A stretch of 62,523 bases of DNA. Origin: a virus. The translations under genes and the position numbers were made by a program. Shown piece after piece: positions 7,092-49,400 of the stretch (positions within the stretch are counted from its first letter, which is position 1; the number at the start of each line of letters is the position of its first letter). Where the stretch lies: IMG/VR virus record IMGVR_UViG_3300027969_000104, positions 1 through 62,523 of that record. One strand, given 5' to 3'. The notes under the pieces were generated by a model. It ran no database searches. It was not told where the DNA came from and saw only the letters and a list, made by a program, of their open reading frames with translations.

Positions 7092-8243
7092 ATGACTCCT
7101 CACGAACTATTAGCACTAGGTAACGATTATCGTTCACAAACTAAACCCGAACAAGCCTTAGCTTGTTATGCCCAAGCATTTGTACAAAATCCCGACATGG
7201 GAGCAGCTTATAATAATTATGGCAACGTAGTAAGAGAAATGGGCTATCCCGATCGTGCAATTGGATTTCTACTCAATGCAATTGCTATTGATGAACATGA
7301 TTCAGTCGCACAATTTAATCTTGCTGTGGCATATTTGCTATCAGGAGATCTTGAGCGCGGCTGGCGTCAATATGAAAAACGTTGGAATTTTGAACATTTA
7401 GATGGCATGTTACCAAAATTTTCTCAACCACGATGGGAAGGCCAGGATTTAAATGGAAAATCTATATTAATAACCGGAGAACAAGGGCATGGTGATAATA
7501 TACAGTTTTGTCGTTTTGCTGAACAACTAGTACATGCAGGAGCAAAAGTTTATATTAGTGTAGATAATAATTTACGACCTTTATTTTTAGCATCATTTTT
7601 AAATTCTGTGACTATCTTAGCACCAGAAGATTTACTCCCTGAATTTGACTACTGGACACCAATTATGAGTATACCAGGATTCCTAGGTATTACATATAAA
7701 AATTTGCCGTACAAGCTACAATATCTTAATCCCAGTGCTGCAACAGTACAAACCTGGGCTAAACGATTAGGTTTAAAAAAACGACTTCGTGTTGGATTTT
7801 GCTGGAGTGGTCGTAAAGACAGCTGGATCAATCAACACAAAGCAGTACCATTTGAAAAAATGCTAGCATTAATACAACGAAATCCTGATTATGAATGGCT
7901 TAATCTTCAGGCAGAATGTACTGCAGATGAACAACAACAATTAGTCTCAGCAGGAGTACAATCTTATCCTGCAAGCATCGGCAATTGGGATGATACAGCG
8001 GGATTAATGCAACACCTTGATGTTGTTGTAGCTGTAGATACCGCAGTTGGGCATCTAGCGGGTGCCATGGGACGACCTTTTTGGTTACCACTTAATAAAT
8101 TTGGTCAAGATTGGCGTTGGCTATTAGACAGGAATGATAGTCCTTGGTATGGATCATGCAGAATTTTCCGTCAACCTACAATTGGCAATTGGGACGATCC
8201 ACTTGAACAAATCCATAATAATTTAAAATTATTTAAGATTTAA
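7092..8243 (+). CDS. TPR protein with GT9-like glycosyltransferase domain
   Basis: 383 residues from the ATG at 7092; an ATG at 7074 is in frame but lies in the promoter-like box. Residues ~1-105 hold about three tetratricopeptide repeats (GNDYRSQTKPEQALACYAQA, then AAYNNYGNVVREMGYPDRAI, then AQFNLAVAYLLSGDLERGW). Residues ~115-383 resemble the C-terminal domain of bacterial TPR proteins related to heptosyltransferase-type (GT-B) enzymes: GEQGHGDNIQFCRF, GFCWSGRKDSW, and VDTAVGHLAGAMGRP near the end, the usual nucleotide-sugar site. The substrate is unknown. The gene lies between fibre genes, so it may glycosylate virion fibres or the host surface; both are inference. The family is common in bacteria and unusual in T4-like phages. 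Confidence 0.75.
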   Translation: MTPHELLALGNDYRSQTKPEQALACYAQAFVQNPDMGAAYNNYGNVVREMGYPDRAIGFLLNAIAIDEHDSVAQFNLAVAYLLSGDLERGWRQYEKRWNFEHLDGMLPKFSQPRWEGQDLNGKSILITGEQGHGDNIQFCRFAEQLVHAGAKVYISVDNNLRPLFLASFLNSVTILAPEDLLPEFDYWTPIMSIPGFLGITYKNLPYKLQYLNPSAATVQTWAKRLGLKKRLRVGFCWSGRKDSWINQHKAVPFEKMLALIQRNPDYEWLNLQAECTADEQQQLVSAGVQSYPASIGNWDDTAGLMQHLDVVVAVDTAVGHLAGAMGRPFWLPLNKFGQDWRWLLDRNDSPWYGSCRIFRQPTIGNWDDPLEQIHNNLKLFKI

Positions 8244-8266
8244 AACATTAAAATTACATTAATCCG

Positions 8267-8274
8267 ACTAAATA
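8267..8274 (+). promoter_or_regulatory. Possible late box ACTAAATA for the fibre operon
   Basis: ACTAAATA (6 of 8 to TATAAATA) lies 28 nt before the ATG at 8303, with AAGGAG in the leader. The same variant precedes the portal gene. Confidence 0.4.
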
Positions 8275-8302
8275 CTTCATAATAACAACAAGGAGTATTA
8301 AA

Positions 8303-11300
8303 ATGGCTGATGGTAATTTTGGTAATGTATCCGCAACAGGTAACATAGTAGCTGATGGCTACATTTCAGCAGCAGGAAATGTAACAGCAGCAAATTTATT
8401 GTTTGCTAGTCCAACTACTGCTAATATCAGTGTTGGTAATATTGGCTTATACAATAATTTAAATATGGTAGGCTCATTATCCACTAGCGGTAATGTCTTG
8501 GCAGATAGAATAACAGGTAATCTTGTCACAGCAAACCAACCTAACATTACTAGCGTAGGTACATTATCTAGCCTGGCAGTAACAGGTAATGCTACTTCTG
8601 GCAATGTATTAACATCAGGTATTATTAGCTCAACAGGCAATGCTACACATAGCAATGTAACAGCAGGAATTGTTTCCGCAAATGCTGTGTTAGCAAATAC
8701 AATAACATTTAACAGCCCAACTACCTCCAATATTGATGTTGGTAATCTTGCGTTATACAGTAATTTAAATATGACTGGCTCTATATCATCTGCTGGAAAT
8801 ATCACTGGCGCTAGATTAATTGGTAATTTATTCACAGCAAATCAACCTAATATTACTAGTATCGGCACATTAACCAGTTTATCAGTAAGTGGTAATGCTA
8901 CAGTCGGTAATGTATTAACATCAGGCATTGTTAGCTCAGCTGGTAACGCCACACATGGCAATGTAGCAGCAGGAATTATCTCCGCAAATGCCATACTAGC
9001 CAATACCATAACATTTAATAGTCCAACTACTGCCAATATTGATGTTGGCAATCTTGCGATATACAGTAATTTAAATATGACTGGCTCAATGTCTGCCGGT
9101 GGAAATATTAGAGGCAACTATTTTCTAGGAAATGGTTACTATTTGACAGGTATAAGTGGTGTAGCAAGTAACTATGGAAATAGTAATGTAGCAGCTTATT
9201 TGCCTACATATACAGGTAATTTAACAGCAAATATTATATCAACAACTGGTAATATAACTGGAAGTTACATTCTAGGCAATGGAAGTCAATTAACTGGCAT
9301 TACTTCTAGCTATGGAAATGCCAATACTGCTAATTTCTTAGCAAATTTCGGTTCCAACACAATTAGTACCACAGGATCAATCAGCGCCGGCGATGTTACT
9401 TTAAATAATCTTTACTCTCCTAATTATTTCGCTAATGCTGTAGCGTTCGCTAATGCTACCGGTTATATTACTACTTCTAGTTTATTCAAGTATAATTCCG
9501 GAACAGAAGTTCTTACAGTAGGCACTGTATCTGCTACAGGCAATATAACTGCTAATTATTTCGTTGGTAATGGAAGTCAATTAACTGATCTTCCAACCGG
9601 TTATTCAAATGCTGATGTTTCTACATATCTGGCAAATAGCAATGTAGTAATTTCAACAACTGGTAATATTACCGGAAGTTATATTCTAGGTAATGGAAGT
9701 CAATTAACTGGTATTGCCGCAAGTTATGGCAACGCCAATGTTGTTGCTAACTTGGCTGCATTAGGATCAAACCCAATCAGCACCACGGGCAATATCACAG
9801 CAGGCAATATCAGCACAGGCGTGATCACACTCACAAACGGTGCAACAATTCAAGACACTGTGGGTGACGCAGTGGCATTTGGTTCGGGTGCTGGACTAAC
9901 CAATCAAGGCCTGGTTGCAGTAGCCATTGGCAACTCGGCTGGTAATGTCAATCAAGGTAATATATCAGTGGCCATTGGTTATCAAGCTGGTAATACCAGT
10001 CAAGGTGACCAATCAGTAGCAATCGGTGATAGTGCTGGTAAAACCACACAAGGTGAATCGTCGGTGGCTGTGGGCCAAGGAGCTGGACAAACCACACAAG
10101 GTGGCTCGGCAATAGCAATTGGTTTTGGGGCTGGTGCAGCCACACAAGGAACCTCGGCAATAGCATTTGGAAGACTTGCTGGTCAAACCACACAAGGCAT
10201 CTCGGCCGTGGCCGTTGGTGATGGAGCCGGGCAAGACACACAGGGTCAATACGCAGTGGCCATTGGCTACGGAGCCGGCAACTCCAATCAAGCCAACAAC
10301 TCAATCATATTGAACGCCACAGGATCAGTCCTGGAGCAAACCACTGTCAACACATTCACAGTGAAACCAGTGCGACAAGCCAACACAGCAAATGCCATGT
10401 ATTATGATGCATCTACTGGTGAGATCACATATGACACGGCTGGTGGCGGCGGCAACACAGGCAATGTAACATTCAATGATATTAATATCATTGGTACAGG
10501 AAACTTAAAACTACAACCAGATTCTGCTAACGCTAGTGCTTATTTGGATATCTTTTTAACCGGAGGTCCAGACATTCACATTGCTGGCAACGGCGAAACT
10601 GTTATTCTTGGGACTGATGACTTTGCAAATGTCACTGTCAATATTGATGGTAATGTGTCTATACAATCCGGTGATGCCAATGGCACACATACTTGGAACT
10701 TTGACACTACTGGTAACTTGTCCTTGCCATTGAATAGTGTTGTCTATGAAACCAACATTCCGGACGGCGGACTTAGTGGCAGTGCCATTGCTTTAAAACC
10801 AACAGGTGGAACAAATGCTGATCAACAACTATTAATTTATCCAACCACTAATGATGCCAATCACCTACACTTGACTTCGGGCAACTTATACAGCACCGAA
10901 TTGTTCTTTGGCAATGATAACTTATATGTTAAGTTAGCAAATACAGGTAATGTTGTTATCAATAGTAATAATGGTATTGGCAATAGTGCTCAATGGACAT
11001 TTGATACCACTGGTAACTTGACCACGCCAGGTGGCATGATCATCAACGGCAACACCAACACGATAGGCACACAGACAGCATTGTTACAAGCCGCTAATGA
11101 TCTACCCTTATCATTTATAGCATCTGGTGCCAACGGGTCAGTAACATCATTCTGGGCAGAAGATTTTGCCAACTTGATGACCAGCAACATAGCGGCCATA
11201 TACACGCCGTTGCAAAACACGCAGACCGTGCGTATTGTCACTGGTAGCAATGGCGGCAATATAGCCATCTACGACTTTGACGATCAAGGAATGTTTACTG

Positions 11301-12058
11301 CGGCTGCTGTTTGCGCTACTGGCAACGTGTACGCCGGCAATGTCGCAGCCTCTGGCAATGTATCCGGCGTTTATATTTTAGGTAACGGCAGTGGATTAAC
11401 TAGTTTACCAGCTCCAGTCGTTACACAAGATATTACCTCCAACGGTGCTATGAGTATAATGACGTATGATGGTAACATAAAATATGTAAACAATGCTACT
11501 ATTGAACCATCCTCCGGCAACATCGCTGGTGGCAATATCAGTGCTAGTGGCAATATCACAGGTAGCAATATTCTGTTTGGATCTGGTATTGTGAGTGGTA
11601 CTGGCAACATAAATGGTAACATTGGTACGTTTACTACCCATAACGGAACAACATTTAGTGCCTCTGGCAATATTACTGGTGGAAATATTAGTGCTAGTGG
11701 CAATATCTCAGGCAACACAAACGGTTTTGCAATCGGTTACTTGAGTATTCCACAAGTTGCGGCAGGTAACGCAACACTAGCTCTAACTGATGCAGGTAAA
11801 CATTACTACTCAACATCAGCAGGTGACTTTACATTAACTATTCCAACTAATGCTAACGTAGCATTTGATACTGGTACAGCAATAAGTATTGTTGTTCAAT
11901 CTGTAGGCAACATATTAGTTAATGCGGCATCAGGTGTAACATTGTATATGGCAGGCAACTCAACTGCTGGTAACAGAGTTGTAAGTACCTACGGTATGGC
12001 AACATTAATGAAAGTTGCAAGTGACACTTGGTTCATTAACGGTACAGGAGTAGCATAA
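8303..12058 (+). CDS. Long tail fibre with tandem repeats and YadA-head-like module
   Basis: 1251 residues. Residues ~30-270 contain a 102-residue unit repeated in tandem (two full copies and part of a third). Residues ~275-500 carry GNGSQLTGI modules. Residues ~525-665 contain eight 16-residue repeats of the type SVAIGYQAGNTSQG, matching the left-handed beta-roll of trimeric YadA-like adhesin heads. The C-terminus contains LALTDAGKHYYST and TLMKVASDTWFINGTG, a cap domain seen in other phage fibres. A trimeric receptor-binding fibre is inferred. Base composition jumps inside the gene near 9775 (32 GC in 60 bases at 9781-9840 against 17 in 60 at 9181-9240), a sign of module exchange. It has a good AAGGAG ribosome-binding site and overlaps the next gene as TAATG. 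Confidence 0.85.
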   Translation: MADGNFGNVSATGNIVADGYISAAGNVTAANLLFASPTTANISVGNIGLYNNLNMVGSLSTSGNVLADRITGNLVTANQPNITSVGTLSSLAVTGNATSGNVLTSGIISSTGNATHSNVTAGIVSANAVLANTITFNSPTTSNIDVGNLALYSNLNMTGSISSAGNITGARLIGNLFTANQPNITSIGTLTSLSVSGNATVGNVLTSGIVSSAGNATHGNVAAGIISANAILANTITFNSPTTANIDVGNLAIYSNLNMTGSMSAGGNIRGNYFLGNGYYLTGISGVASNYGNSNVAAYLPTYTGNLTANIISTTGNITGSYILGNGSQLTGITSSYGNANTANFLANFGSNTISTTGSISAGDVTLNNLYSPNYFANAVAFANATGYITTSSLFKYNSGTEVLTVGTVSATGNITANYFVGNGSQLTDLPTGYSNADVSTYLANSNVVISTTGNITGSYILGNGSQLTGIAASYGNANVVANLAALGSNPISTTGNITAGNISTGVITLTNGATIQDTVGDAVAFGSGAGLTNQGLVAVAIGNSAGNVNQGNISVAIGYQAGNTSQGDQSVAIGDSAGKTTQGESSVAVGQGAGQTTQGGSAIAIGFGAGAATQGTSAIAFGRLAGQTTQGISAVAVGDGAGQDTQGQYAVAIGYGAGNSNQANNSIILNATGSVLEQTTVNTFTVKPVRQANTANAMYYDASTGEITYDTAGGGGNTGNVTFNDINIIGTGNLKLQPDSANASAYLDIFLTGGPDIHIAGNGETVILGTDDFANVTVNIDGNVSIQSGDANGTHTWNFDTTGNLSLPLNSVVYETNIPDGGLSGSAIALKPTGGTNADQQLLIYPTTNDANHLHLTSGNLYSTELFFGNDNLYVKLANTGNVVINSNNGIGNSAQWTFDTTGNLTTPGGMIINGNTNTIGTQTALLQAANDLPLSFIASGANGSVTSFWAEDFANLMTSNIAAIYTPLQNTQTVRIVTGSNGGNIAIYDFDDQGMFTAAAVCATGNVYAGNVAASGNVSGVYILGNGSGLTSLPAPVVTQDITSNGAMSIMTYDGNIKYVNNATIEPSSGNIAGGNISASGNITGSNILFGSGIVSGTGNINGNIGTFTTHNGTTFSASGNITGGNISASGNISGNTNGFAIGYLSIPQVAAGNATLALTDAGKHYYSTSAGDFTLTIPTNANVAFDTGTAISIVVQSVGNILVNAASGVTLYMAGNSTAGNRVVSTYGMATLMKVASDTWFINGTGVA
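8399..9110 (+). repeat. 306-bp tandem repeat inside the fibre gene
   Basis: The segment around TTATACAATAATTTAAATATG at 8447 recurs at 8753 and 9059, a spacing of exactly 306 bp (102 codons). Copies run roughly 8399-8704 and 8705-9010, with part of a third to about 9110. The repeats differ mainly at third codon positions. Confidence 0.8.
9880..10300 (+). repeat. Eight 48-bp (16-residue) YadA-head-like repeats
   Basis: The translated units GLVAVAIGNSAGNVNQ, GNISVAIGYQAGNTSQ, GDQSVAIGDSAGKTTQ and five more are in register, with conserved A-I/V-G and A-G. This stretch is much more GC-rich than the flanks (39 GC in 60 bases at 10201-10260). Confidence 0.85.
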
Positions 12059-12798
12059 TGAGTGGCGCAATAATGGCCGTAATGTCTAACACTCCATCAC
12101 GGGTAAGTTATACTGCTCTTGCTGGTAGCCTACAGTTTAACGGAAGCAATCAGTATCTTAGTATAACTCCCGGCGCCGCACTAGGCACCGGTGCTTACAC
12201 TATAGAAGGTTGGTGTTACAACAACGGTACATATGCTAATCAAGCCGCATTGGTTGCCACAGATCAATCAGGTGCTCTAAGCCTATTCAACACTGACGCA
12301 CAGTCATTTACACTAGACAAATACGGTGGTGGTGGTGCAAGAACTTATACTTTTCCCAGTAACACCTTGCAAGTCAATAAGTGGCAGTATATCATACTCA
12401 ATCGCAATGCTAGTACACAGGTAGAAACTATGTGGGTGGGTACTTTTGTCAATACTAGTGCTTATGTAACTTGTAACCGTGCTACCGGTGCCGCAGGCGG
12501 AACCAGTATCAGCGGCGGAACACAGGTAAACAATCTTGATTACACAGGTGTTTGTAACTGGATAGGCAGATTCTACGGTGGCTATTGGCCTGGTTTTATT
12601 ACCAACCTTAGAATCACTGTTGGAACAGCTGTGTATAACAGCACTAGTAGCACAGTCATAGCACCTTCAGCACCGTTAGCAAGTTTGGCTAATACCAAAT
12701 ATCTGATGTTGGGTGCGGTAGTTACTGCAGACACCTCAGGTACACAAACTGTGACTAACAACGGCACAGTGACACAAATTGCAACTAAACCGTTCTAA
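12058..12798 (+). CDS. LamG/concanavalin-like lectin domain virion protein
   Basis: 246 residues. SLQFNGSNQYLSITPGAALG near residue 25, YTIEGWCYNNGTY, a central NKWQYIILNR and FITNLRITVGTAVY near the end form the standard sequence of the jelly-roll LamG/concanavalin A-like fold that binds glycans. It overlaps the fibre stop by one base (TAATG), implying translational coupling, and is followed by a strong terminator, so it is the last gene of the fibre operon. Like the YadA-head-like part of the fibre, it is GC-richer than the genome around it, consistent with acquisition together with that module. Probably a fibre tip or receptor-binding accessory; role inferred. Confidence 0.75.
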   Translation: MSGAIMAVMSNTPSRVSYTALAGSLQFNGSNQYLSITPGAALGTGAYTIEGWCYNNGTYANQAALVATDQSGALSLFNTDAQSFTLDKYGGGGARTYTFPSNTLQVNKWQYIILNRNASTQVETMWVGTFVNTSAYVTCNRATGAAGGTSISGGTQVNNLDYTGVCNWIGRFYGGYWPGFITNLRITVGTAVYNSTSSTVIAPSAPLASLANTKYLMLGAVVTADTSGTQTVTNNGTVTQIATKPF

Positions 12799-12803
12799 AA
12801 ATT

Positions 12804-12830
12804 AAAAAGCACCGTTTGGTGCTTTTTTTT
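12804..12830 (+). terminator. Rho-independent terminator of the fibre operon
   Basis: AAAAAGCACC and GGTGCTTTTT form a 10-bp stem around GTTT, with the T run continuing to 12830. It lies 6 nt after the lectin-domain gene. It also shows that an in-frame ATG at 12816 cannot be the start of the next gene. Confidence 0.9.
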
Positions 12831-12874
12831 ACAGTTCTCACCCGGCCAACCGAAACGTGTGCCAAGCTAATTCT

Positions 12875-12882
12875 TATAAATA
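12875..12882 (+). promoter_or_regulatory. Exact late promoter TATAAATA 5 nt before a start codon
   Basis: TATAAATA is followed by TTTAC and ATG (12888). With the box at -13 to -6, the predicted first transcribed base is the A of the ATG. No ribosome-binding site can fit in the message, so a leaderless mRNA is predicted. Confidence 0.65.
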
Positions 12883-12887
12883 TTTAC

Positions 12888-13565
12888 ATGAAAATTACTG
12901 AAATCCTCAACGAATTTAAAACATACCATGGCTCTTCACGAATGTTTGATAAATTTTCACTGGATAAAGTACTAAGCGGAGAAGGGAATGTAAGCTACGG
13001 ATACGGAATATATGTAGCAGGCAATCCGGGAACAGGCAAACATTATGCCATGGTAGCGCATGAAGCAAATAAAGCTAGAATATTTGATAAAAAATCTCAA
13101 ATAAGTGCCATCAAACACAAGTTAGCAAGAGTTTCATATCGCGGACAAATATCAATAAGTCCACAGGAACGACAAGAATTAATTAAAACTCAAAAAATTC
13201 TAGAAAAAGAAGTTATTGATTTTGAAAAAGGTCTTGGAAAAAAGTTTTATGAATTAAATGTAAATGATGATATTGTTCCATATTTGTTTGATTTAGATAA
13301 AAAATTATCAGAACAAACACCTCAAGTAAAAAAATCATTAGTGAAACTAGGTGTTGATTTATCTCAATCAATCACTGGATTTAGATTATTAAAACAAATG
13401 GAAGAACAAAATGATGTTAAAACAACATCTGAACAACTCCATGCTGCTGGAATATCTGGAACAAAATATTTTGATCGCGGAAGTCGTGATTCATCAAGTA
13501 GTACATTTAACTACGTGATATTTGATCCTGCAAATATTACAATAACAAAAGTTATTGAATTATAG
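12888..13565 (+). CDS. Probable ADP-ribosyltransferase (ART-PolyVal-like)
   Basis: 225 residues from the ATG at 12888, chosen because the upstream in-frame ATG lies inside the terminator. Motifs match ADP-ribosyltransferases of the polyvalent-protein type: YHGSSRMFDKF at 13-23 (conserved His), GEGNVSYGYGIYVA at 31-44 (conserved Tyr), YELNVNDD...LDKKLSEQ at 121-143, GISGTKYFDRGSR at 188-200 and NYVIFDP at 208-214. In related domains the SEQ-type element carries the catalytic acidic residue. Residues ~60-115 are a helical insertion. T4 modifies host RNA polymerase with ARTs (Alt, ModA, ModB); this protein is of a different type, and its target is unknown. It is driven by a late box, so it may be packaged in the virion. 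It ends overlapping the convergent HNH gene by 14 bases. Confidence 0.7.
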   Translation: MKITEILNEFKTYHGSSRMFDKFSLDKVLSGEGNVSYGYGIYVAGNPGTGKHYAMVAHEANKARIFDKKSQISAIKHKLARVSYRGQISISPQERQELIKTQKILEKEVIDFEKGLGKKFYELNVNDDIVPYLFDLDKKLSEQTPQVKKSLVKLGVDLSQSITGFRLLKQMEEQNDVKTTSEQLHAAGISGTKYFDRGSRDSSSSTFNYVIFDPANITITKVIEL

Positions 13566-14361
13566 CCTTTTTACAGTTATCACCGTGCCAACGAGCGTAC
13601 CCGTTCACTGCTACATGTTGATCACAATGTGGGCATAGTTTCTTTTCACGCTTGCTACCCCTAACTGCGTCTGCTTTCTTTTGTTTTGTTTCTTCTGATT
13701 GCTTACGTCCAGTTGCTTTCTCAGACATTTTAGCAATCGTTTCTGCTGAATGTGACTTGCCGTAATTTGGATTACCTTCACCTGAATACATTTTACTTCT
13801 TTCTAATTTGTATTCTTCGCTATATGGCTTTCTTTCAATCCCATCATTCTTTCTTTTTATCCAAGCTGCTTTTTGTTTTTCTTTTTCATGCACAGGTTGT
13901 TTTCTTCCAGTAATTTTCTTACTATGCTCTTCTTTTTGTTCAGCAGTCCGACTAATTCCGTAATTAGGATTACCTTCTCCTTTCATTGACTCACTTTGTA
14001 ATCTTGCCCGCTCAGCTCTTACACCAGCAAGTCTACGAGATGAAAAATATCGTTTACCTTCTTGTCTTGTGTTTACCATGCTACGCATTTCATATGCTTT
14101 AAGCACTTTAAAGTATGCTTGTTTATTATCTTTATGTATCTTCGTTAATAGATAATGTACTAACTCATGTTCCCTATCAGTTAAGTGGGTTATATTTTCT
14201 ATGGCATCACTGTCACCAATTATCCAACCACTCGGACCTTTTCTTTTGCGAATTGAGTAAAATGACTCAGGGATAATATGATGTTTTTCAGTATATCCTT
14301 CAATTACCCGAGTTTGTCCTCGTTTACAGATGTTGTTGTACCATTTTGTGTATTTGTTCAT
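13552..14361 (-). CDS. HNH homing endonuclease with NUMOD3 repeats
   Basis: 269 residues from the ATG at 14361. A longer frame runs to 14481, but that extension covers a terminator and a promoter-like box. EKHHIIPESF near residue 25 is the HNH-type catalytic core (His-His pair). Two GEGNPNYGxSxxxE segments near residues 130 and 200 are NUMOD3 DNA-binding elements, and the C-terminus has a CPHC...HGDNC zinc-finger-like cluster. Free-standing endonucleases of this type spread by cutting phage genomes that lack them. It sits just downstream of the capsid gene and its terminator, a classic landing site in T4-like genomes, with its own late-box-like element. Confidence 0.85.
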   Translation of the reverse strand: MNKYTKWYNNICKRGQTRVIEGYTEKHHIIPESFYSIRKRKGPSGWIIGDSDAIENITHLTDREHELVHYLLTKIHKDNKQAYFKVLKAYEMRSMVNTRQEGKRYFSSRRLAGVRAERARLQSESMKGEGNPNYGISRTAEQKEEHSKKITGRKQPVHEKEKQKAAWIKRKNDGIERKPYSEEYKLERSKMYSGEGNPNYGKSHSAETIAKMSEKATGRKQSEETKQKKADAVRGSKREKKLCPHCDQHVAVNGYARWHGDNCKKAIIQ

Positions 14362-14366
14362 GTGTT

Positions 14367-14374
14367 TATTTATG
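14367..14374 (-). promoter_or_regulatory. Late box variant CATAAATA 5 nt before the HNH gene start
   Basis: The minus strand reads CATAAATA, then AACAC, then ATG at 14361. No Shine-Dalgarno sequence is present. The geometry is identical to that at 12875 on the other strand. Confidence 0.5.
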
Positions 14375-14413
14375 TTTGTTAATTCAATAGTAACATTTTT
14401 ATAAACAACAGTC

Positions 14414-14440
14414 AACAAAAAAGACACATTTCTGTGTCTT
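14414..14440 (-). terminator. Rho-independent terminator after the major capsid gene
   Basis: The minus strand has AAGACACA, a GAAA tetraloop, then TGTGTCTT running into T6. It lies about 65 nt downstream of the gp23 stop and ends the head operon before the endonuclease gene. Confidence 0.85.
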
Positions 14441-14506
14441 CCTTGTCTTCCCATCCCTAGGAAATTTTTTCTGTATAACAATTTCTTGCTGTACAGAATC
14501 TTTCTT

Positions 14507-15703
14507 TTAGCTAAAGCTGAGATTTTGGACCGCTATCTCGCCTACATAATCGGCAGCGTTACCAAAACTCGAGGCCGTGTTAGTGAGCTCCACAAACCCG
14601 TACCTTGTCATAAATGATACGACTGGTTCGAATGTGCTTGGATCCAACACAACGCCAGAACTCATCAGAGGAATGTATGGGCAATAGAACGCAGCGGCAT
14701 CAGCCTCTGACGAACCTTTGTAACCAACTAGAACTGATTGTGTATCTGGAGCATAGCTGTTTACGAATACACGTAATGAACCGTTTAGTGTACCGACAAA
14801 CTTAGTGTTTGTAGGTGCTTCAAAAGTTCCTTCTGTTGTACGAGCAAAAGCTGATGTTGTTGCAGATTGCAGTACTGTTAATGCAGCACTTGAAACAACG
14901 GCCCAGTTACCAGCGCCACGACGAGTACGTTGGGCGATTAGGTTGGCAACACGGTTGATCAGAACGGCTAATGCAGCGTGTTCATCACCAACGAATGTAG
15001 CAGTACCTGATACTGTAGCTTGGTTGTATGTGTACTCTGTAGCAGCCAATGAGCTTAACGATAAGAGGATCTCTTGATCGATTTCAGCTGTGATTTCTTG
15101 AGCTAAAGCAGCCATAATTTCTGCTTCAACGTCAATACCGTGCATAGCTTGGGCGTCTTGTGCTGATTCAAATGTCCAACGAGCTTGTAACTTACGTGTC
15201 TTTGCTTCGACGGCTTGTTTCAAGATTTGGATACTGATTTGCTTACCGCCAGTACCTTCCATAGTAGCAGTATTGTTACCGGTATAAGCGGTAGCAGTAG
15301 TAGTACCTTGTGGAACTGTTGAGTATGCTGTAGCGATGGTGAATGGGCTTAAAGCTTCTTGACCAGCTGTTACACTTGTAGCGGCTAAGCTATTGTCAGT
15401 CAATGACTGAGCATAACGTACACGTAGAGTATGGATCTGGGATACAGGTCCTGTCATTGGTTGTACACCAACCAACTCGTTAGCGATAACGGTTGGCATT
15501 ACACGTCGGATAACTGGCAGAATTACACGGTTTAATGTAGCAATGTTGCCTGACGCGGTTGAACCCGATGTTGCATTTTCTTTCAAATACTTACGGGTGT
15601 TTTCTAGGATTACAGACATTGAGCTACGCTTTGAGCCGCCTAGGCCTTCTAGCAATGCATCTTTTGTCTCGCCCCAACGGCTTTCTAATAACGCTTGTGA
15701 CAT
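14507..15703 (-). CDS. 23: Major capsid protein gp23
   Basis: 398 residues. The N-terminus (MSQALLESRWGETKDALLEG) and RVILPVIRRVMPTVIANELV, followed by VQPMTGPVSQIHTLRVRY, are the conserved gp23 signature of T4-like phages. The C-terminal part SSGVVLDPSTFEPVVSFMTR also fits. The T4 protein has 521 residues, so this one is short, probably lacking the insertion domain. The gp21 protease cuts after (L/I)xE; LKE at residues 40-42, just before NATSGSTASGN, is the best candidate site. AAGGAGAC precedes the ATG. The gene follows gp22 in the same direction by 20 nt, as in T4, and is closed by a strong terminator. Confidence 0.95.
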   Translation of the reverse strand: MSQALLESRWGETKDALLEGLGGSKRSSMSVILENTRKYLKENATSGSTASGNIATLNRVILPVIRRVMPTVIANELVGVQPMTGPVSQIHTLRVRYAQSLTDNSLAATSVTAGQEALSPFTIATAYSTVPQGTTTATAYTGNNTATMEGTGGKQISIQILKQAVEAKTRKLQARWTFESAQDAQAMHGIDVEAEIMAALAQEITAEIDQEILLSLSSLAATEYTYNQATVSGTATFVGDEHAALAVLINRVANLIAQRTRRGAGNWAVVSSAALTVLQSATTSAFARTTEGTFEAPTNTKFVGTLNGSLRVFVNSYAPDTQSVLVGYKGSSEADAAAFYCPYIPLMSSGVVLDPSTFEPVVSFMTRYGFVELTNTASSFGNAADYVGEIAVQNLSFS

Positions 15704-15723: not shown

Positions 15724-16833
15724 TTACAGCCCTGCCAACCGCTTAAGATCAATGACGTTACTTTCGGTATCGTCTTCTTGTTCTTGGACACGGGCAGATT
15801 TATCGCCAGTTGCTTCGGTTAATGTTTCTGTAAAGACTTTTTTAGCTTTCACAGAGCGATTTTCTAAAACTGCTGGTAGATACTTTTCAAAAGCACCTTT
15901 CAAACGTGGAGTTTGAACGCTTTCAAGTAAATTACGCATTACTTCTGCTTTCTCTTCATTTAGAGGAGATAACAATTCTTCCATTGTACGGTTACGTACA
16001 TTAGATTCTTTTAGGATGCGTACTTCACGTTCTTTGGATTCGACTAAGACAGTTGCTTTCTTAGCGAATTTGATGGCTTCAGCAATTTTTTGATCTTTGT
16101 AAGCAATCATATCGTGCAGTTTACGGACTTCAGCTTTCTCATTGAGGTGAGTAGCTCCGAATTCTGTACTATATGCTTCAAAAATACGACGACCAAAATT
16201 GTTCTCACGAGCAATTTGGATGTCTTCTTTCAATTGGCTGAGTTCAGACTTAAGATGCTTGGATACGGCTTGTGACATTTTTTGTGCAGATTCTTTTACG
16301 AAACGGCTTTTTAGTGATTCTAATTGGCCACGTGCATTTTGAACCAGGCGAACCTTAGTTTCAACTACATCACGTTTATCTTCTTGGAATTCACGAATTT
16401 CACGAGCTAACGCATGAACGATAAAACCTTCTAACTTTTGAAGGCCCTCATTATGTGTTTTACGATCTCGACGCAATTCGCCAATTTCTTCTGCTAATTT
16501 AGATACCATGAAGTTGTTAAACTTGTTTGTATCTTCTTTAATTTTGCGTTGGAATTTGACACGATCTTCAGCAAGTGCGGCTTTTTCGGCCTTAATTTGC
16601 TGAACTTCTGCGACAAGACTTTCTGTTACCATGCGATCTAAGGCTTCCACCATCACTGATTTGTCATGCTCGTAGCGTTGAGCAAACTCTTCTCGGAGTT
16701 CTGCTCGTGCTTGTTCTTTGGCTTCAACAATCTTGGCTTCCCAAGCTTCATTGATTTCAGCTCTTGCTTCCTCAGTAACAAACTCGCTATCTAGTAACGG
16801 TTTCAATGCGTCTAGCATATTATTTTCCTTCAA
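15724..16833 (-). CDS. 22: Prohead core scaffolding protein gp22
   Basis: 369 residues, almost entirely charged helix and coiled coil (for example KAALAEDRVKFQRKIKEDTN and GELRRDRKTHNEGLQ). MLDALKPLLDSEFVTEEARA at residues 6-25 is the typical gp22 start. Near residues 285-320, MEELLSPLNEEKAEVMRNLL and LKGAFEKYLPAVLE match the conserved C-terminal region. It forms the core on which gp23 assembles and is then cut by gp21. It is longer than T4 gp22 (269). The start overlaps the stop of the gp21 gene by 14 bases, and the ribosome-binding site AAGGAAAA lies within that gene. A later in-frame ATG (MLDALK) could be the true start. Confidence 0.9.
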   Translation of the reverse strand: MKENNMLDALKPLLDSEFVTEEARAEINEAWEAKIVEAKEQARAELREEFAQRYEHDKSVMVEALDRMVTESLVAEVQQIKAEKAALAEDRVKFQRKIKEDTNKFNNFMVSKLAEEIGELRRDRKTHNEGLQKLEGFIVHALAREIREFQEDKRDVVETKVRLVQNARGQLESLKSRFVKESAQKMSQAVSKHLKSELSQLKEDIQIARENNFGRRIFEAYSTEFGATHLNEKAEVRKLHDMIAYKDQKIAEAIKFAKKATVLVESKEREVRILKESNVRNRTMEELLSPLNEEKAEVMRNLLESVQTPRLKGAFEKYLPAVLENRSVKAKKVFTETLTEATGDKSARVQEQEDDTESNVIDLKRLAGL

Positions 16834-17470
16834 TCTTCAGACCACGTATTAAACGAATTACTTCATTTGATACGTACTTCTGTGCTTTGTTGCTGTTAGC
16901 CGGATTCTTAAACATTTCCAATAACTTTTGTCCGCCGGCATGGTTTAATAAGCCTTCGTAAATTGCTGTTGGATATGCGTTTGGAGCACTTGGCTGAGCA
17001 ACTACATCGACAGTGACGATTTCAAAGTCACTGACATGTCCGTTGGAGTCGTTGACATTTCCTGATCCACGACTACTAACCCCTAATTTCACACCTTGAT
17101 CTAACATTGTTTTCACAAGTAAACCCATTGGTGTTCCTAATATTTTTAATTTGCCATAACCACAATGTCCTTCCATCCACATTTTTTCAATCATATGTGA
17201 AACACGATCTAAATTAATCTTAAGATCATCGGGATGGTCAACTTCACCTAATACAGAATGACCTGTTTTAAGTTGTTCATTAACTGTGTCTACTGCTTTG
17301 GCAATTTCATTTACTGGATATATACGCTCATTGGCATTTCGTATGCCACCCTCAATACAAATACCCTTCATATAAAGAGTTTTGCCGCCATCTTTGGCTT
17401 CCTCAGTTAAAAGTTCGACTTTTGCCTGAGTGAAGCTTAGATGTTCTTTGAGATATGTGTTGCGAGCCAT
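16820..17470 (-). CDS. 21: Prohead core protease gp21
   Basis: 216 residues. GEVDHPDDLKINLDRVSHMI with His79 and GVKLGVSSRGSGNV with Ser132/133 form the catalytic motifs of the gp21 family (herpesvirus-type maturation serine protease). GICIEGGIRNANERIYP near residues 36-52 is the conserved N-terminal element. It cleaves gp22, gp23 and the core proteins after (L/I)xE. It lies between the acidic core protein gene and gp22, matching the T4 head gene order. Confidence 0.95.
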   Translation of the reverse strand: MARNTYLKEHLSFTQAKVELLTEEAKDGGKTLYMKGICIEGGIRNANERIYPVNEIAKAVDTVNEQLKTGHSVLGEVDHPDDLKINLDRVSHMIEKMWMEGHCGYGKLKILGTPMGLLVKTMLDQGVKLGVSSRGSGNVNDSNGHVSDFEIVTVDVVAQPSAPNAYPTAIYEGLLNHAGGQKLLEMFKNPANSNKAQKYVSNEVIRLIRGLKIEGK

Positions 17471-17479
17471 ATCAGTCTA

Positions 17480-18379
17480 TTAACCTTTTGGAAAAGGTGT
17501 TTTTGTATTAACGCCAGATGCTTGCGCTAAATGTGGCTTTGGAGCTGGTGCTAATTTAGCATTTGCGCCGCCTTTTGCTGGAACATTTTTGAATGAACCT
17601 GCACCTGGAAGATCGCCACGGCCTTTGTCAGCATAGCTTGTTGGAGCTTTGTATGCAGCTGTACCATCTGGATTTGATTCAGATGCTACATTGCGCACTG
17701 GCTTACCTTGCATACCGGCCGCGCCCGAGTTAAATGTTGTTGGTGATTTAGTATTAACACCGTTGTCACCCATTTTTGCAGGAGCAACTTTCTCTAAACT
17801 AACACCTTCCATCATACCCTGCTGGTCATCAAATTCTGATGTGTCATCATCGGTGTAAGCATCGCCGCCAACATCGCCATCAACTGGTTCCATGTCAAAG
17901 TCGTCGCCTTCTTCGTCGCCCATTTCAGCTTCTTCGTCGCCCATTAAAGCTTCAAATTCAGCCATTAATTCGTCAAGTTTGTCTTCAAGATCAACTACAC
18001 GGTCTTCAAGATCTTCTTCGCCGCCAAATTCTTCGCCGTCATCTTCGCCATCATCATGATCATGTTCCATATCTTTGGTAAGATCTTCGCCGTCTTCTTC
18101 AGCTTCGTCATCAAATTCAGAATCTTCTTCATCTTCTGCATCATCTTCTTCTTCGTTCATGCCTTGTTGATCAGTTTCAACTTCTCGTGTCATGTCCTGA
18201 CTAGCAGAGCCAGAAGTATCGTTCATATCTTCATCGATATCTTCGTCTTCTTCTTCATTCATTAAATTTTCATAAATTTCGCGTGATTTCTCAACTACGA
18301 TGTTATGGAAAAGCTCGCGGGCTTTTTGTTCGTCATCGTTAATCACATACTCGATTAACTGTTCAAATTTCGATGTCAT
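17480..18379 (-). CDS. Acidic prohead core protein (gp68-like position)
   Basis: 299 residues. The N-terminus FEQLIEYVINDDEQKARELF plus FHNIVVEKSREIYENLM resembles the start of head core proteins found before gp21 in aquatic T4-like phages. Residues ~42-195 are an extreme acidic tract (runs such as EEEDEDIDEDMND and EEEDDAEDEEDSEFDDE). Residues ~205-299 are a low-complexity Gly/Ala/Pro/Lys tail with repeated NTKSP/NTKTPF motifs. The acidic tract suggests a scaffold or DNA-mimic-like core component that may be cut by gp21. It has a strong AAGGAGA ribosome-binding site. Assignment rests on position and charge, not on a clear domain. Confidence 0.7.
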   Translation of the reverse strand: MTSKFEQLIEYVINDDEQKARELFHNIVVEKSREIYENLMNEEEDEDIDEDMNDTSGSASQDMTREVETDQQGMNEEEDDAEDEEDSEFDDEAEEDGEDLTKDMEHDHDDGEDDGEEFGGEEDLEDRVVDLEDKLDELMAEFEALMGDEEAEMGDEEGDDFDMEPVDGDVGGDAYTDDDTSEFDDQQGMMEGVSLEKVAPAKMGDNGVNTKSPTTFNSGAAGMQGKPVRNVASESNPDGTAAYKAPTSYADKGRGDLPGAGSFKNVPAKGGANAKLAPAPKPHLAQASGVNTKTPFPKG

Positions 18380-18467: not shown

Positions 18468-18695
18468 TTACATCTGTGGACCAGCAGGCTCAACTGGAGG
18501 AGAATATTGCGCCTTGACATATTTTAATTTGCTTTTATGTTCTATTTTACGAATATCATTCATCTGACGTAATTTACGAATTTGGGTTAATGTCAACCTA
18601 GTCTTACGTAATTGACCCATTTGAGGTTGAGAATTATCGTTTTCTAAATCTTGATAAGATTCAGGACTTTTTTCGTAGATTTCGTTTAGTATCAT
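18468..18695 (-). CDS. Small basic prohead core protein (gp67-like position)
   Basis: 75 residues. LTLTQIRKLRQMNDIRKIEH is a basic helix seen in the small protein encoded between portal and protease genes of cyanophage-type T4 relatives. The length is like T4 gp67 (about 80), but the sequence resemblance is only by position and charge. The ATG is preceded by GATAAATA at 18703-18710 with 7 nt between and no ribosome-binding site. Confidence 0.6.
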   Translation of the reverse strand: MILNEIYEKSPESYQDLENDNSQPQMGQLRKTRLTLTQIRKLRQMNDIRKIEHKSKLKYVKAQYSPPVEPAGPQM

Positions 18696-45900: not shown

Positions 45901-46408
45901 TACAACTAATACTATTACTCAACCTTTGCCACCTACAATTAATGAGTTAACTACATCGTATGCTGCGTTACAAGATTACAAAATGATCAGTGATAACATG
46001 ATTCTTAACAGTGTGGAATTTTTGCCACTATTTGGAAGTAAAGCTCCAGAAGCATTACGGGCTATTATTAGAGTTGTGCCAGCTGCAAATACTAATGCTA
46101 GCAATAATCAAATTCAAAATCTTGTACTATCAACTATGAATGCGTATTTTGACATTGCTAATTGGAATTTTGGACAGACTTTTTATTTTTCTGAACTAGC
46201 ATCATATATTCATGCTCAAATTGGAACTTATGTGGCTTCTGTTGTATTAGTTCCACTTAACCCACAAAAATCATTTGGTGATTTGTATGAAATACAATGT
46301 GCTCCATATCAAATTTTTGTTAACGGTGCCACAATTAACAACATTGAAATTATTCAATCATTGACTAGCACTAACTTACAAACTGCCCCTGGTAGTGGAG
46401 CAATTTAA
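42977..46408 (+). CDS. 6: Baseplate wedge protein gp6 (J-like), long form
   Basis: 1143 residues. FETLRKSFIDYLRQYYPETF, SEFIALLDVMAFMGQSLAFR and TDLNTRENYIDTAERRDSVI at residues 30-100 are the gp6 signature. Residues ~400-430 (INQIKQRAPARYYTQNRMVN-like segment: QIKQRAPARYYTQNRMVNGE) are the J-like domain. The C-terminal part IRAIIRVVPAANT...STMNAYFDIANWNFGQT resembles the ring-forming end. T4 gp6 has 660 residues, so about 480 residues are extra, mainly between residues ~530 and 1010. gp6 forms the inner ring of the baseplate wedges with gp25 and gp53. Its stop overlaps the giant gene start (TAATG). Confidence 0.88.
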   Translation: MAKTTRQTVLFGVEDWKKIYQTYSEGNFQSYDFETLRKSFIDYLRQYYPETFNDYIESSEFIALLDVMAFMGQSLAFRTDLNTRENYIDTAERRDSVIKLANLVSYNPERNTEANGYLKVFSIQTTENVTDYNGLNLANVNVNWADPSNFDWQEQFTAILNASLLDTQFVGSPGNEQVILGVDTSEYTINLVPGYLPVVPFTATVNGVNMPFEVVNATSLAETYIYEPPPLPNGQFNILYRNDQMGYQSANTGFFFYFKQGTLQNQDFNLLEQISNRTVNINIEGVNQTDVWLYQLDNVGSVNKIWTKVPSIYEAAVEQMTPNLRDVYSVTSRTNDQITLVFGDNVFATIPVGQFRNYVRSSNGLQYIINTENMQSVQIPISYVSRSGQIETLTFTCGITSPVTNAAARETIDQIKQRAPARYYTQNRMVNGEDYTNFPFTTNNSIIKSAALNRSSIGTSRYLDLVDPTGKYSSTNVFGSDGALWYINSTPAFTFTFQTNNDINNVILNDITPVLSQETFRQFYNAYFPRPSLTNLNYSWYESTTIVNETTGYFQNSSGVPVPVGSTVSNNAFFIDETALIKFVPPSGYYFDSKNELKPGIPTEAGDHLVIWASPTAIDGDGTNDGLGNLIDGTGPVVLNTYVPTGAIPVDVIPMLITKFNSETQQSILNQIYLKQNFGLGYDSTGAITGTAYSWYIITSANLAIDATWSQAYAGNTTNANLDASWMIQATYNGSQYTVQSRSLNYYFGSVLEVRFFFGTDQAIYDSRSGTVISDFAKVLRSNSQPDNNSPLMTDVTLKIIGQPVLSDGLVDDYQVLVSYQDYNNNGIPLDPDFFQQIVGVSPSSTTIPQPYVYFQLTVDFDNLERYILQPNGIVNDDYATVSQIQLVKEQYSTGQVFYAYQENNFYTLTLALSGVRTLTLTQGWVAQVGRQDLYFQYRHNSALSNLIDPGSTNIIDLYLVTLSYYTAYSSWVRDTTNTITQPLPPTINELTTSYAALQDYKMISDNMILNSVEFLPLFGSKAPEALRAIIRVVPAANTNASNNQIQNLVLSTMNAYFDIANWNFGQTFYFSELASYIHAQIGTYVASVVLVPLNPQKSFGDLYEIQCAPYQIFVNGATINNIEIIQSLTSTNLQTAPGSGAI

Positions 46409-49400
46409 TGGCCGCAAAAATTCGTTCTGTTGATTTTTTACCTGAAATATTCCAAACACCGGTAAACACTCAGTTTTTAACAGCTACACTTGATCAATTA
46501 ATCCAAGAACCAAAATACAAACAGACTCAAGGTTTTATCGGACGAAAAGTCGGGCCTGGTGTAATACCATCTGACGGCTATGTCATTGAGCCAAATGCTA
46601 CTCGTAACAATTACCAATTAGAACCGGGTGTGGTAAGTATTGATCCTATCACATTAAAAATTAATGATGCTATTACATACCCTGGAATTATTAATGCTCT
46701 TAATACACAAGGTGGCATTACTGAGCAGGCAGATAGATTATTTGAAAGCGAATATTACACCTGGGATCCTTTTGTAGATTTTGACAAGTATAATAACTAT
46801 TCTCAGTATTATTGGTTGCCTGACGGACCAGACTTAGTTACTGTTGCACCTACTTCAATACCCACTGAACAAACTTTTAATGTTACTCGTAGTAACGGAG
46901 CGTACACATTTACTGATTATTCTGGAAATAACCCAGCATTGACTTTAGTACGTAATGGCAAATATAAGTTTGTTATAGCACAAAATACACCTGCTACTAT
47001 AGAATATCGTGTTACTAACAGAGGGACTAGTAGTTGGACTATAAATTCCGTTGCCAATCCTACATTAACCCTTATTCGCGGCAACACATATGTGTTTAAT
47101 TTAGTACAAACTGTTAATCTTGCGTTTTATATCAAAACTCAACCAAGTTTTGGCACTACAAATTTATGGTCGGATGGAGTTACTAATAATGGAGCAGGCG
47201 AAGGGTTAGTTACATTTACTGTGCCTCAAAATGCACCAGATACTTTATATTACAGTAATGATTTAGAATTTAATCTCCGTGGACAGTTTGATATTATTAG
47301 TGCTGAGCCAGGCACTGGTCCAGATTTTTGGATTCAATCTGCGCCTGGCGTTGATGGTAAATTGCCATCGTCAAGGAATATCAGCAGCCGTGATGTGCTT
47401 GGTGTGTCAAACAACGGCACGGATTTAGGCACAGTTACATTTAATGTTCCTGATGTCAGCGCACAGAATTTCTACTATTCTATGCCATATATTGGTTACC
47501 CTACCGCAACAACAGGAGTAGTAGATTTAATTTGTGATAATATACAATTTGACCAAATAAACGGTATTACTGTTGAACAATTTTTAGCTACTTATCCTGA
47601 TGGTATTGACGGCATCACTAATCTAAATGGTAGGACACTTGTATTTCCTACTCAATCGTCAGACCCTGCCCCTGGCGGATGGTATAACGTGCAACCATTT
47701 GATCCACTTTTAACAGGTCAGAATTTTCAAGTAGGATCATATGATACTACTGGATTTGCAGAAGCTATTCCTATTACTGATCCTGCGGTACAAGCAAGTT
47801 TATGGCAAATTCAATATGTAAACAAAGGCGGTGTAGATTTTATTCAGCTTAATAGCATTTTTTCTATTGCTGATTTAACACAATTTATTGTTTCTTTTGG
47901 ATCTCAATATGTTAATACACAGTGGTATAAGAATTCGTCTGGATTCTTTACACAAATGCCATTACTTACTGCAGCATTGCCACGGTTATACTATCAAGAT
48001 AGTGAAGATCCAAGTATTTTTGGTGTAATCAATCTTATTGATGGCAATATTAATCCAAGTATTCCTGCATTGGCTATTAGCGGGCTTTCAGCATCTGGAA
48101 CAGAAGTGACATTATCTTTTTCAGAACAGACATCAGCTCCTTACTCTATTGGAAGTACAATTATTGTATCGGAAATTACTCCAACCGGATATAATGGAAA
48201 TTATACAGTATTAGATTGTACTACAACATCAGTAACTTACGCAAGTACATATACTGGAACGTATAGTACTGGTGGTGTAATAAATTCTGTTAGTATCAAC
48301 TCATATATCAATGTTGAAACTGATATTTTAGGTCAACTAAATTATACTAGCCCAAACGGCATAACATTTACCAATGGACTTAAGATTATATTTAAAGGCA
48401 ATGTATTCCCTACATCATATGTAAACAATACTTACTATGTACAGGGCGTTGGGTCTGGAATAAAACTAATACTTGCTTCTAACTTAATTGCAGTGGAACC
48501 TTATGCTAATGATGATAGTGGACAACCTGTAGTTCCTGATTATATTACAATCAGCATAGCTAGTCTTGATTTAAATCCATGGACTCGCAGTAACAGGTGG
48601 TTTCATGTTGATGTTATTGATGCTGCTGCTGCCTATAATAATGTAACTCCTAGTTATACTGGTTTACAACGTGCAGCCCGTCCTATTTTAGAGTTTAGAG
48701 CTGGTACAAAATTATTTAACTTTGGCACAGAAGGATTGCCAGCTGTTAACGTCATTGATTTTACCCAAACTAACGCATTATTAAATGTAAATGGTCAATT
48801 GGGATATGGTGTTAATGGATACGAATTTGTACAAGGCAGTTTAGTTATATTTGCTGCTGATTCTAATGCAGATGTGCGTAATCAAATTTTCACTGTGAAC
48901 TTTATTGTTCCTGATCCTGAAACTACAACTGTCCCTATCATTGATTTGGTACCAACAAGTTATAGTCCAGTTTCATTTAATCAAACAACGGTATGTCTTA
49001 ACGGTCTTACATTGCCAGTTACATCAGCGTCTGGAACAGGCACTAGCGTTACTCTAAACTTTACCCCACGATCAAGCATTCCTTATGTAGTTGGACAATC
49101 TATTTCGGTATCAGAAATATTACCAGCTTCTTATAATGGAAATTATATTGTAACTGCATGTACGACTTTTTCAGTTAGCTTTGCTAGTAATACTACTGCA
49201 ACTTATATTTCTGGGGGTACTATTGGTGTTCAGGGTCAAAGTTTTTACTATAATGGCACGACATGGGTAGATTCTCAGCAAAAAAATTCTGTTAATCAAG
49301 CTCCATTGTTTGATGTATTTGATAGTAGTGGATATAGTTTTAGTGATTCAACAATATATCCAAGTTCTAACTTTACAGGATGTAAACTTCTAAGTTATGC

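What the first reader, a model, noticed from the sequence alone, without database searches (positions are those of the whole stretch)
12875..13565. Late-expressed ADP-ribosyltransferase of the polyvalent type
The 225-residue protein has the YHGS, YGYGIYVA, LSEQ and NYVIFDP motifs of ART-PolyVal domains, unlike T4 Alt/ModA. It is behind an exact late box between fibre and head genes, suggesting that it is packaged and acts at the start of infection on a host target, or acts against competing phages or host defence.
Basis: partly seen in the sequence, partly recalled or inferred. Interest (0 to 1): 0.7.

Follow-up and report, generated by a model that had tools for sequence, protein, structure and literature searches.

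The report
Head-packaged ADP-ribosyltransferase with T4-type leader
A giant T4-like freshwater phage carries a small ADP-ribosyltransferase-type enzyme whose first nine residues look like the address tag that sends proteins into the phage head, so it is probably injected with the DNA to alter host proteins; the same tag sits in front of many different enzymes of this type in related phages.

Summary
The gene is real (12888-13565, 225 aa). It belongs to a divergent subfamily of the ART-PolyVal ADP-ribosyltransferases: Pfam is weak for this protein alone (18.4 bits, cut-off 31.2), but 58 of 63 aligned members match ART-PolyVal, and an AlphaFold model (pLDDT 91.6) matches phage ART-PolyVal models. 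Most homologues carry the domain inside longer proteins of non-T4 phages; here it stands alone behind a nine-residue unstructured leader, MKITEILNE. That leader resembles T4 Alt's (MELITELFDE, known to be cut at ITE-6). The window encodes the T4-type prohead genes and the protease gp21. Such leaders are enriched at gene starts in this phage clade (11 of 136 M[K/R] starts; 1 of 470 internal M[K/R]; 0 of 82 in non-T4 contigs). Across IMG/VR, leader plus (Y/F)HG occurs at 47 gene starts (19 distinct proteins) against 0 for a Lys-for-Glu control. Best explanation: a late-made, prohead-targeted, gp21-trimmed, injected ART, working like T4 Alt with a different ART class. Shown: homology, predicted fold, leader, promoter layout. 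Inferred: packaging, cleavage, injection, target. Caution: an invariant Asn occupies the catalytic-Glu position, so the chemistry is untested. The gene is absent from close relatives: accessory cargo.

The parts
12804..12831 (+). intrinsic-terminator-like hairpin plus T run between the upstream fibre-type gene and the ART gene
   Evidence: hairpin 12804-12827, listed on the - strand; one search shows the + strand T run after the same hairpin
12875..12882 (+). TATAAATA late-promoter box, 5 nt before the ATG
   Evidence: clade-wide spacing histogram
12888..13565 (+). gene for the 225-aa ART-PolyVal-like protein
12888..12914 (+). codons 1-9, MKITEILNE: predicted capsid-targeting leader; (I/L)xE motifs ITE (residues 3-5) and LNE (residues 7-9), predicted gp21 cut after E9 (or E5)
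   Evidence: (T4 Alt MELITELFDE); pLDDT 64 for residues 1-10; Alt processed at ITE-6 (PMC5694885)
12927..12929 (+). His14, predicted strand-1 active-site residue, invariant in 63 aligned members
12981..12983 (+). Glu32 of the invariant GEG loop, candidate replacement carboxylate (inference)
13011..13013 (+). Tyr42, predicted strand-2 active-site residue, invariant
13509..13511 (+). Asn208, invariant, at the strand-5 position that is Glu in PARP/diphtheria-type ARTs (position by sequence pattern)
14507..15703 (-). gp23-type major capsid protein
   Evidence: 67% identity to Vibrio phage 2.275.O, 65% to PA5oct
15724..16818 (-). gp22-type scaffold protein
   Evidence: about 40% identity to the scaffold of MIJ3/PA5oct
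16820..17470 (-). gp21-type prohead protease (Peptidase_S77), the predicted processor of the leader
   Evidence: Pfam PF03420 E = 6.6e-26, over cut-off
17480..18379 (-). acidic prohead-core-type protein (gp67/68-like by position and N-terminus)
   Evidence: the PA5oct protein at the same place is flagged ESI-MS/MS
18468..18695 (-). small head-locus protein; the PA5oct counterpart gp333 starts MKINDIITE and is flagged ESI-MS/MS

Best explanation
The gene encodes an accessory, head-packaged ADP-ribosyltransferase that works like T4 Alt but uses an ART domain of the polyvalent (PARP/diphtheria-like) type. It is transcribed late from a TATAAATA promoter that sits against the start codon. Its first nine residues (MKITEILNE) bind it to the growing prohead core. 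The gp21 protease of the same phage cuts after ITE or LNE and frees the ART domain (from about F10) inside the head. The domain is then packed with the DNA, ejected into the next host, and there modifies a host macromolecule with ADP-ribose from NAD+. Shown here: homology and predicted fold, the leader and its statistical reality, the protease and head genes, the late-box layout, and accessory status. Inferred: packaging, cleavage, ejection, catalysis, target.
For: ART family: 58 of 63 aligned members match ART-PolyVal, best E 6e-10. AlphaFold model pLDDT 91.6, pTM 0.83, with the leader the poorest block. 25 BFVD matches at E<0.001, several named ART-PolyVal. Packaging tag: T4 Alt starts MELITELFDE and is cut at ITE-6 (PMC5694885); ten N-terminal residues suffice for targeting in T4 IPIII (PMC9026906). 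Such leaders stand at 11 of 136 M[K/R] starts in this clade, 1 of 470 internal M[K/R] (p 5e-7), 0 of 82 in contigs whose ARTs sit in longer, polyvalent-type proteins (p 0.008). Leader plus (Y/F)HG in IMG/VR: 47 gene starts, 19 distinct proteins, against 0 for the Lys-for-Glu control. One of these, in a jumbo phage with gp23 85% identical to this one, is a clear ART-PolyVal (MRAREFIAE leader; E 4.7e-14, 53.8 bits, over cut-off). Another is of the same subfamily (MKIKEIVIE directly before the domain). T4 head genes gp20, gp21 and gp23 are present in 6 of 16 leader-ART contigs, the same six each time; gp21 in 0 of 16 control contigs. PA5oct gp333, a head-locus protein starting MKINDIITE, is flagged ESI-MS/MS. 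Homologues lie beside or within virion structural genes.
Against: No virion proteomics exists for this uncultivated phage. The leader is short, and its motif was chosen after seeing this protein and T4's; the control scans address this only in part. LxE falls at residues 7-9 rather than 8-10 as in IPIII. The strand-5 catalytic Glu/Asp position is an invariant Asn, so an active transferase is not assured. No solved ART structure matched significantly. ESI-MS/MS flags in PA5oct also mark non-structural proteins, and another PA5oct protein with such a leader, gp213, is not flagged. Ten of the 16 leader-ART contigs tested showed no T4 head gene, though they are fragments.
Confidence: 0.66

Rival explanations
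1. Late-acting, non-packaged ART: the enzyme is made late and acts in the cell that makes it, as ModA/ModB-type enzymes do (though those are made earlier), or blocks superinfecting phages. The leader is an ordinary N-terminal extension.
For: Late promoter; some phage ARTs are not packaged (ModA, ModB; PMC5512222, PMC9503650).
Against: Leader enrichment at gene starts and its association with ART and other enzyme domains across unrelated families. R-S-E-like ART relatives 43-47% alike keep an (I/L)xE ending while the rest of the leader differs (MRIIEILTE, MKFLEFINE, MISFKSHLNE).
Confidence: 0.2
2. Packaged but not a transferase: the H-Y-N domain binds NAD+ or ADP-ribose, or works as an NADase or decoy, for example against NAD-based host defences, because it lacks the catalytic carboxylate.
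For: Invariant N208 at the expected catalytic-Glu position in 63 of 63 aligned members; D213 is not conserved.
Against: H14, Y42, E32 and R200 are invariant, as expected for a working active site; some PARP-type mono-ARTs lack the Glu and use the substrate's own acid (established knowledge, not tested here).
Confidence: 0.2
3. Structural or internal head protein without enzymatic role: the ART fold is a relic used as filler or a DNA-binding internal protein.
For: Accessory status; T4 internal proteins are dispensable and diverse (PMC3012670).
Against: Strict conservation of the active-site-like residues in a family otherwise about 30% identical.
Confidence: 0.06

Closest known systems
T4 gpAlt (NP_049811)
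   Same: ART-superfamily enzyme; leader MELITELFDE resembles MKITEILNE; (I/L)xE sites; phage with a gp21/22/23 prohead
   Different: Alt is R-S-E class, about 680 aa, beside gene 30 and the baseplate genes; the window protein is H-Y type, 225 aa, near gp23
ART-PolyVal domains (PF18760; Tox-ART-HYD2 clade, Iyer et al. 2017)
   Same: YHG(S/T) and YGxGxYxA motifs, H in strand 1, Y in strand 2; virion-locus genes
   Different: Prototypes sit inside large multidomain proteins and have an Asp in strand 5; here a stand-alone protein with a T4-type leader and Asn208
Sulfitobacter phage phiGT1 gp5 and Caudoviricetes vir555_00054
   Same: Homologues over nearly the whole domain (29-31% identity), beside portal/scaffold or tail/internal virion genes
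   Different: Domain preceded by about 120-550 other residues, no such leader, non-T4 phages
T4 internal proteins IPI-IPIII
   Same: Short N-terminal capsid-targeting propeptide cut by gp21 in front of an unrelated cargo; accessory and fast-changing
   Different: IPI cargo is a restriction inhibitor, not an ART

Membership tests
ART-PolyVal (PF18760) | score above the curated cut-off | tested here: not met
   18.4 bits against 31.2; but 58 of 63 aligned members match, best E 6e-10
ART-PolyVal (PF18760) | His in strand 1 and Tyr in strand 2 | tested here: met
   H14 and Y42 invariant in 63 of 63, in strands 10-16 and 41-44 of the model
ART-PolyVal (PF18760) | Asp in strand 5 (Iyer et al. 2017, PMC5512222) | tested here: inconclusive
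   strand 207-211 carries invariant N208; D213 just after it is present here but variable in the family (D 39, E 10, N 9 of 63)
ART superfamily fold | predicted structure matches ARTs | tested here: inconclusive
   strong matches to predicted phage ART-PolyVal proteins, none significant to solved structures; long inserted helices 47-83 and 92-115 are a likely reason
ART superfamily activity | NAD binding and transferase activity | not testable with these tools
   needs biochemistry
Alt/VIP2 (R-S-E) ARTs | Arg-Ser-Glu active site | tested here: not met
   H-Y motifs instead
T4-type capsid-targeting sequence cargo | N-terminal 7-20 residue leader ending in a gp21-type (I/L)xE site, outside the fold | tested here: met
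   MKITE/ILNE; pLDDT 64 over residues 1-10; enrichment tests
T4-type capsid-targeting sequence cargo | phage has a gp21-type protease and prohead core | tested here: met
   PF03420 E 6.6e-26 at 16967-17413; gp22, gp23
T4-type capsid-targeting sequence cargo | protein found trimmed inside virions | not testable with these tools
   uncultivated phage; needs proteomics
Known anti-phage defence proteins | match to PADLOC models | tested here: not met
   no match at E 1

The most novel reading that the evidence does not exclude
T4-superfamily phages far beyond T4 use a common, portable head-delivery cassette (a late promoter set against the start codon plus a nine- to ten-residue M[K/R]xxE[I/F][L/I]xE leader) to load a large, interchangeable set of injected effectors: several ART classes, protein-kinase-like and nucleotidyltransferase-like proteins. 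The leader alone would predict unknown injected effectors genome-wide. The H-Y-N ART of this window would be one of them.
Probability: 0.5. Interest if true: 0.82.

Novelty: new variant of a known kind. Interest (0 to 1): 0.64.

Why it matters
Head-packaged phage ARTs beyond T4 Alt have so far been predicted from gene neighbourhood and fusion. A recognisable delivery leader in front of unrelated ART classes gives a direct sequence criterion for injected effectors and a simple test (leader-reporter packaging, N-terminus of the virion form). It also suggests that ART cargo is swapped behind a common leader. The invariant Asn at the catalytic position raises a separate, testable question about ART chemistry.

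Tried and rejected
A TTG start at 12816 (249 aa) was rejected because it starts inside the terminator hairpin. Sequence searches of solved structures with the protein and with profile A2 gave only unrelated or coiled-coil matches, and Foldseek against the PDB gave no significant ART. ART copies were sought in relatives of this phage: none in 73 loci around gp22, including those with up to 8.8 kb beyond gp23, and none in nine longer records; nor in eight leader-bearing records. A conserved 5' cassette shared at DNA level with the small MKITEITDK gene found near this place in L096 was considered: the first six residues are alike, but upstream DNA and orientation differ. PA5oct as a proteomics test was only partly informative: three leader-like starts, of which one head-locus protein is MS-flagged and one (gp213) is not; the MS status of the third was not looked up. 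The Roseovarius podovirus prototype ART aligned to the profile only around YHG, so its strand-5 Asp could not be placed exactly. NCBIfam and PADLOC gave nothing.

Full report
WHAT IS THERE. The window is a 62.5-kb fragment of an uncultivated jumbo-type T4-like phage (virus record). Its gp23, gp22 and gp21 are closest to those of Vibrio phage 2.275.O, Pseudomonas phage PA5oct/MIJ3 and Sinorhizobium phage Phosso. Between a fibre-type gene (12058-12798) and a convergent endonuclease-like ORF next to gp23 lies the ORF 12888-13565, 225 aa. It is preceded by a terminator-like hairpin and by TATAAATA five bases before the ATG. No Shine-Dalgarno sequence is present.

IS THE LATE BOX REAL? By count TATAAATA is not over-represented in the window (8 against 11.7 expected). 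Its position is another matter. Over 1,060 genes of this clade the distance from the box to the ATG is bimodal: 4-7 nt (26 genes) or 18-31 nt (17 genes), with none at 8-17 nt and one at 50 nt. The first class leaves essentially no 5' leader if T4 late start sites apply (established knowledge), so these would be leaderless late genes. The ART gene is in this class. So are several other leader-bearing genes in L166, L173, L223, L269 and L258.

WHAT THE PROTEIN IS. Pfam ART-PolyVal matches weakly (18.4 bits, E 0.004, cut-off 31.2). Homologues over nearly the whole domain exist in phages phiGT1, vir555 and Tunturi_5 (26-31% identity) and in hundreds of viral contigs. Of 63 aligned members (this protein included) 58 match ART-PolyVal, best E 6e-10. 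The alignment has invariant H14, F23, G31-E32-G33, G38, G40, Y42, A44, Y53, G191, Y194, D196, R200, N208 and V210. AlphaFold2 gives pLDDT 91.6 and pTM 0.83.

ACTIVE SITE. The polyvalent ARTs were described with His in strand 1, Tyr in strand 2 and Asp in strand 5 (PMC5512222). H14 and Y42 fit. In the strand N208-Y-V-I-F the residue at the position of the PARP/diphtheria-type catalytic Glu is Asn in all 63 members; D213 is variable. This placement is by sequence pattern and model strand, not by superposition. The subfamily is best called H-Y-N. E32 of the invariant GEG loop is a candidate acid (inference). Transferase activity is therefore likely by homology but not assured.

THE LEADER. In nearly every homologue for which the position of the HG motif could be read, the ART domain follows 49 or more other residues of a longer protein; in three, the first ATG of the open frame lies within or after the motif. 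L014 and L015 have the shortest N-terminal stretch (about 16 residues), and it is not of this type. Here only MKITEILNE precedes the first strand, and it is the poorest block of the model (pLDDT 64 for residues 1-10). T4 Alt begins MELITELFDE and is processed by gp21 at ITE-6 (PMC5694885). In T4 IPIII the first ten residues suffice for targeting into the head, and gp21 then removes them (PMC9026906). MKITE/ILNE carries the same ITE and a second LNE. The window encodes the gp21-type protease (PF03420, E 6.6e-26).

IS THE LEADER MORE THAN CHANCE? Within the clade the motif M[K/R]x(2-4)[E/D/Q][hydrophobic][hydrophobic]xE stands at 11 of 136 M[K/R] gene starts, at 1 of 470 internal M[K/R] (p 5e-7), and at 0 of 82 starts in the non-T4 contigs that carry the ART inside longer proteins (p 0.008). 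A pattern for leader plus late box found 19 stretches in IMG/VR, mostly marine MRFTEFLTE... proteins. A pattern for leader plus (Y/F)HG found 74 stretches: 51 in frame and 47 at a gene start, 19 distinct proteins. The control pattern with Lys codons in place of the two Glu codons found 35 stretches, 2 in frame, 0 at a gene start. Among the hits is a clear ART-PolyVal (53.8 bits) with leader MRAREFIAE in a 264-kb phage contig whose gp23 is 85% identical to this one. Another is a same-subfamily protein, MKIKEIVIE directly followed by the domain. Where head genes are present on the contigs they are T4-type (gp20, gp21 and gp23 in the same 6 of 16); none of 16 control contigs has gp21.

A SECOND ART CLASS BEHIND SUCH LEADERS. 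In L166, 2.8 kb downstream of gp23, a 227-aa protein starts MRIIEILTE and has an R-S-E-like signature (LYRG, ESWTSD, KEFIV). Its best PDB fold neighbours, none significant, include many R-S-E ARTs. Relatives 43-47% alike start MKFLEFINE (L231) and MISFKSHLNE (Rhizobium phage RHph_I1_18), while phiM9's annotated start has no such leader. The gene before it in RHph_I1_18 is annotated as a protein kinase and starts, from a TTG codon, with KSFSEHIAE after the initiator.

MECHANISM. Late synthesis, docking in the prohead core through the leader, trimming by gp21, packaging, ejection, and ADP-ribosylation of a host target early in the next infection. Shown: sequence family, predicted fold, leader, protease, promoter layout. 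Inferred: every step after translation. The gene is absent from all close relatives examined, so it is accessory, as expected for an arms-race cargo.

KNOWN OR NEW. Head-packaged ARTs are known (Alt) and have been predicted for polyvalent proteins from neighbourhood and fusion (PMC5512222; PMC9503650). Variable CTS-borne internal proteins are known in T-even phages (PMC3012670, PMC9026906). I found no paper linking T4-type leaders to H-Y-type ARTs or to jumbo phages of this clade, within an open-access library only. I rate it a new variant of a known kind.

Noticed in passing
clade-wide; in window 12875-12888 and 28201-28187 (-): Distance from TATAAATA to ATG is bimodal (4-7 or 18-31 nt, none at 8-17) over 1,060 genes, suggesting a large class of leaderless late mRNAs in these phages.
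   Followed up: partly
L166:15010-15690; L231:3001-3699; L227:1866-2567: A family with an R-S-E-like ART signature whose members start with different leaders ending in (I/L)xE (MRIIEILTE, MKFLEFINE, MISFKSHLNE); no significant Pfam, NCBIfam or PDB sequence match for L166; phiM9_063 is a relative without the leader.
   Followed up: partly
L259:4513-11595: A run of consecutive genes starting MRISEIE, MRINEIE, MKITEITRP, MKIKEIVIE, MKIKEIILN and MKITEITRP; several carry YHG ART-type motifs and two look protein-kinase-like: a possible effector island.
   Followed up: no
L182:1612-3217, 8088-8699, 17751-18227 (-): Several proteins with MRAREFISE-type starts, three of them adjacent; one matches PHROG 14802 (virion structural protein, head and packaging) from residue 1.
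   Followed up: partly
L207-L214, L216-L220, L222, L224, L225: Marine T4-like phage proteins MRFTEFLTE... with a KYDGSP motif resembling a nucleotidyltransferase/ligase motif I, late box 5-6 nt before the ATG; PHROG 455, function unknown.
   Followed up: partly
window 13552-14481 (-) and the same place in L097, L104, L108, L117, L137, L140: Endonuclease-like ORFs of varying type directly downstream of gp23; T4 has segD at the same place.
   Followed up: no
L096:12293 and L145:13382: Small genes starting MKITEITDK and MKIFEITDK, about 1.1 kb downstream of gp23 in two close relatives that lack the ART.
   Followed up: partly
window 46408-61716 (+): A 5,102-aa open reading frame in the tail/baseplate region, not examined.
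   Followed up: no
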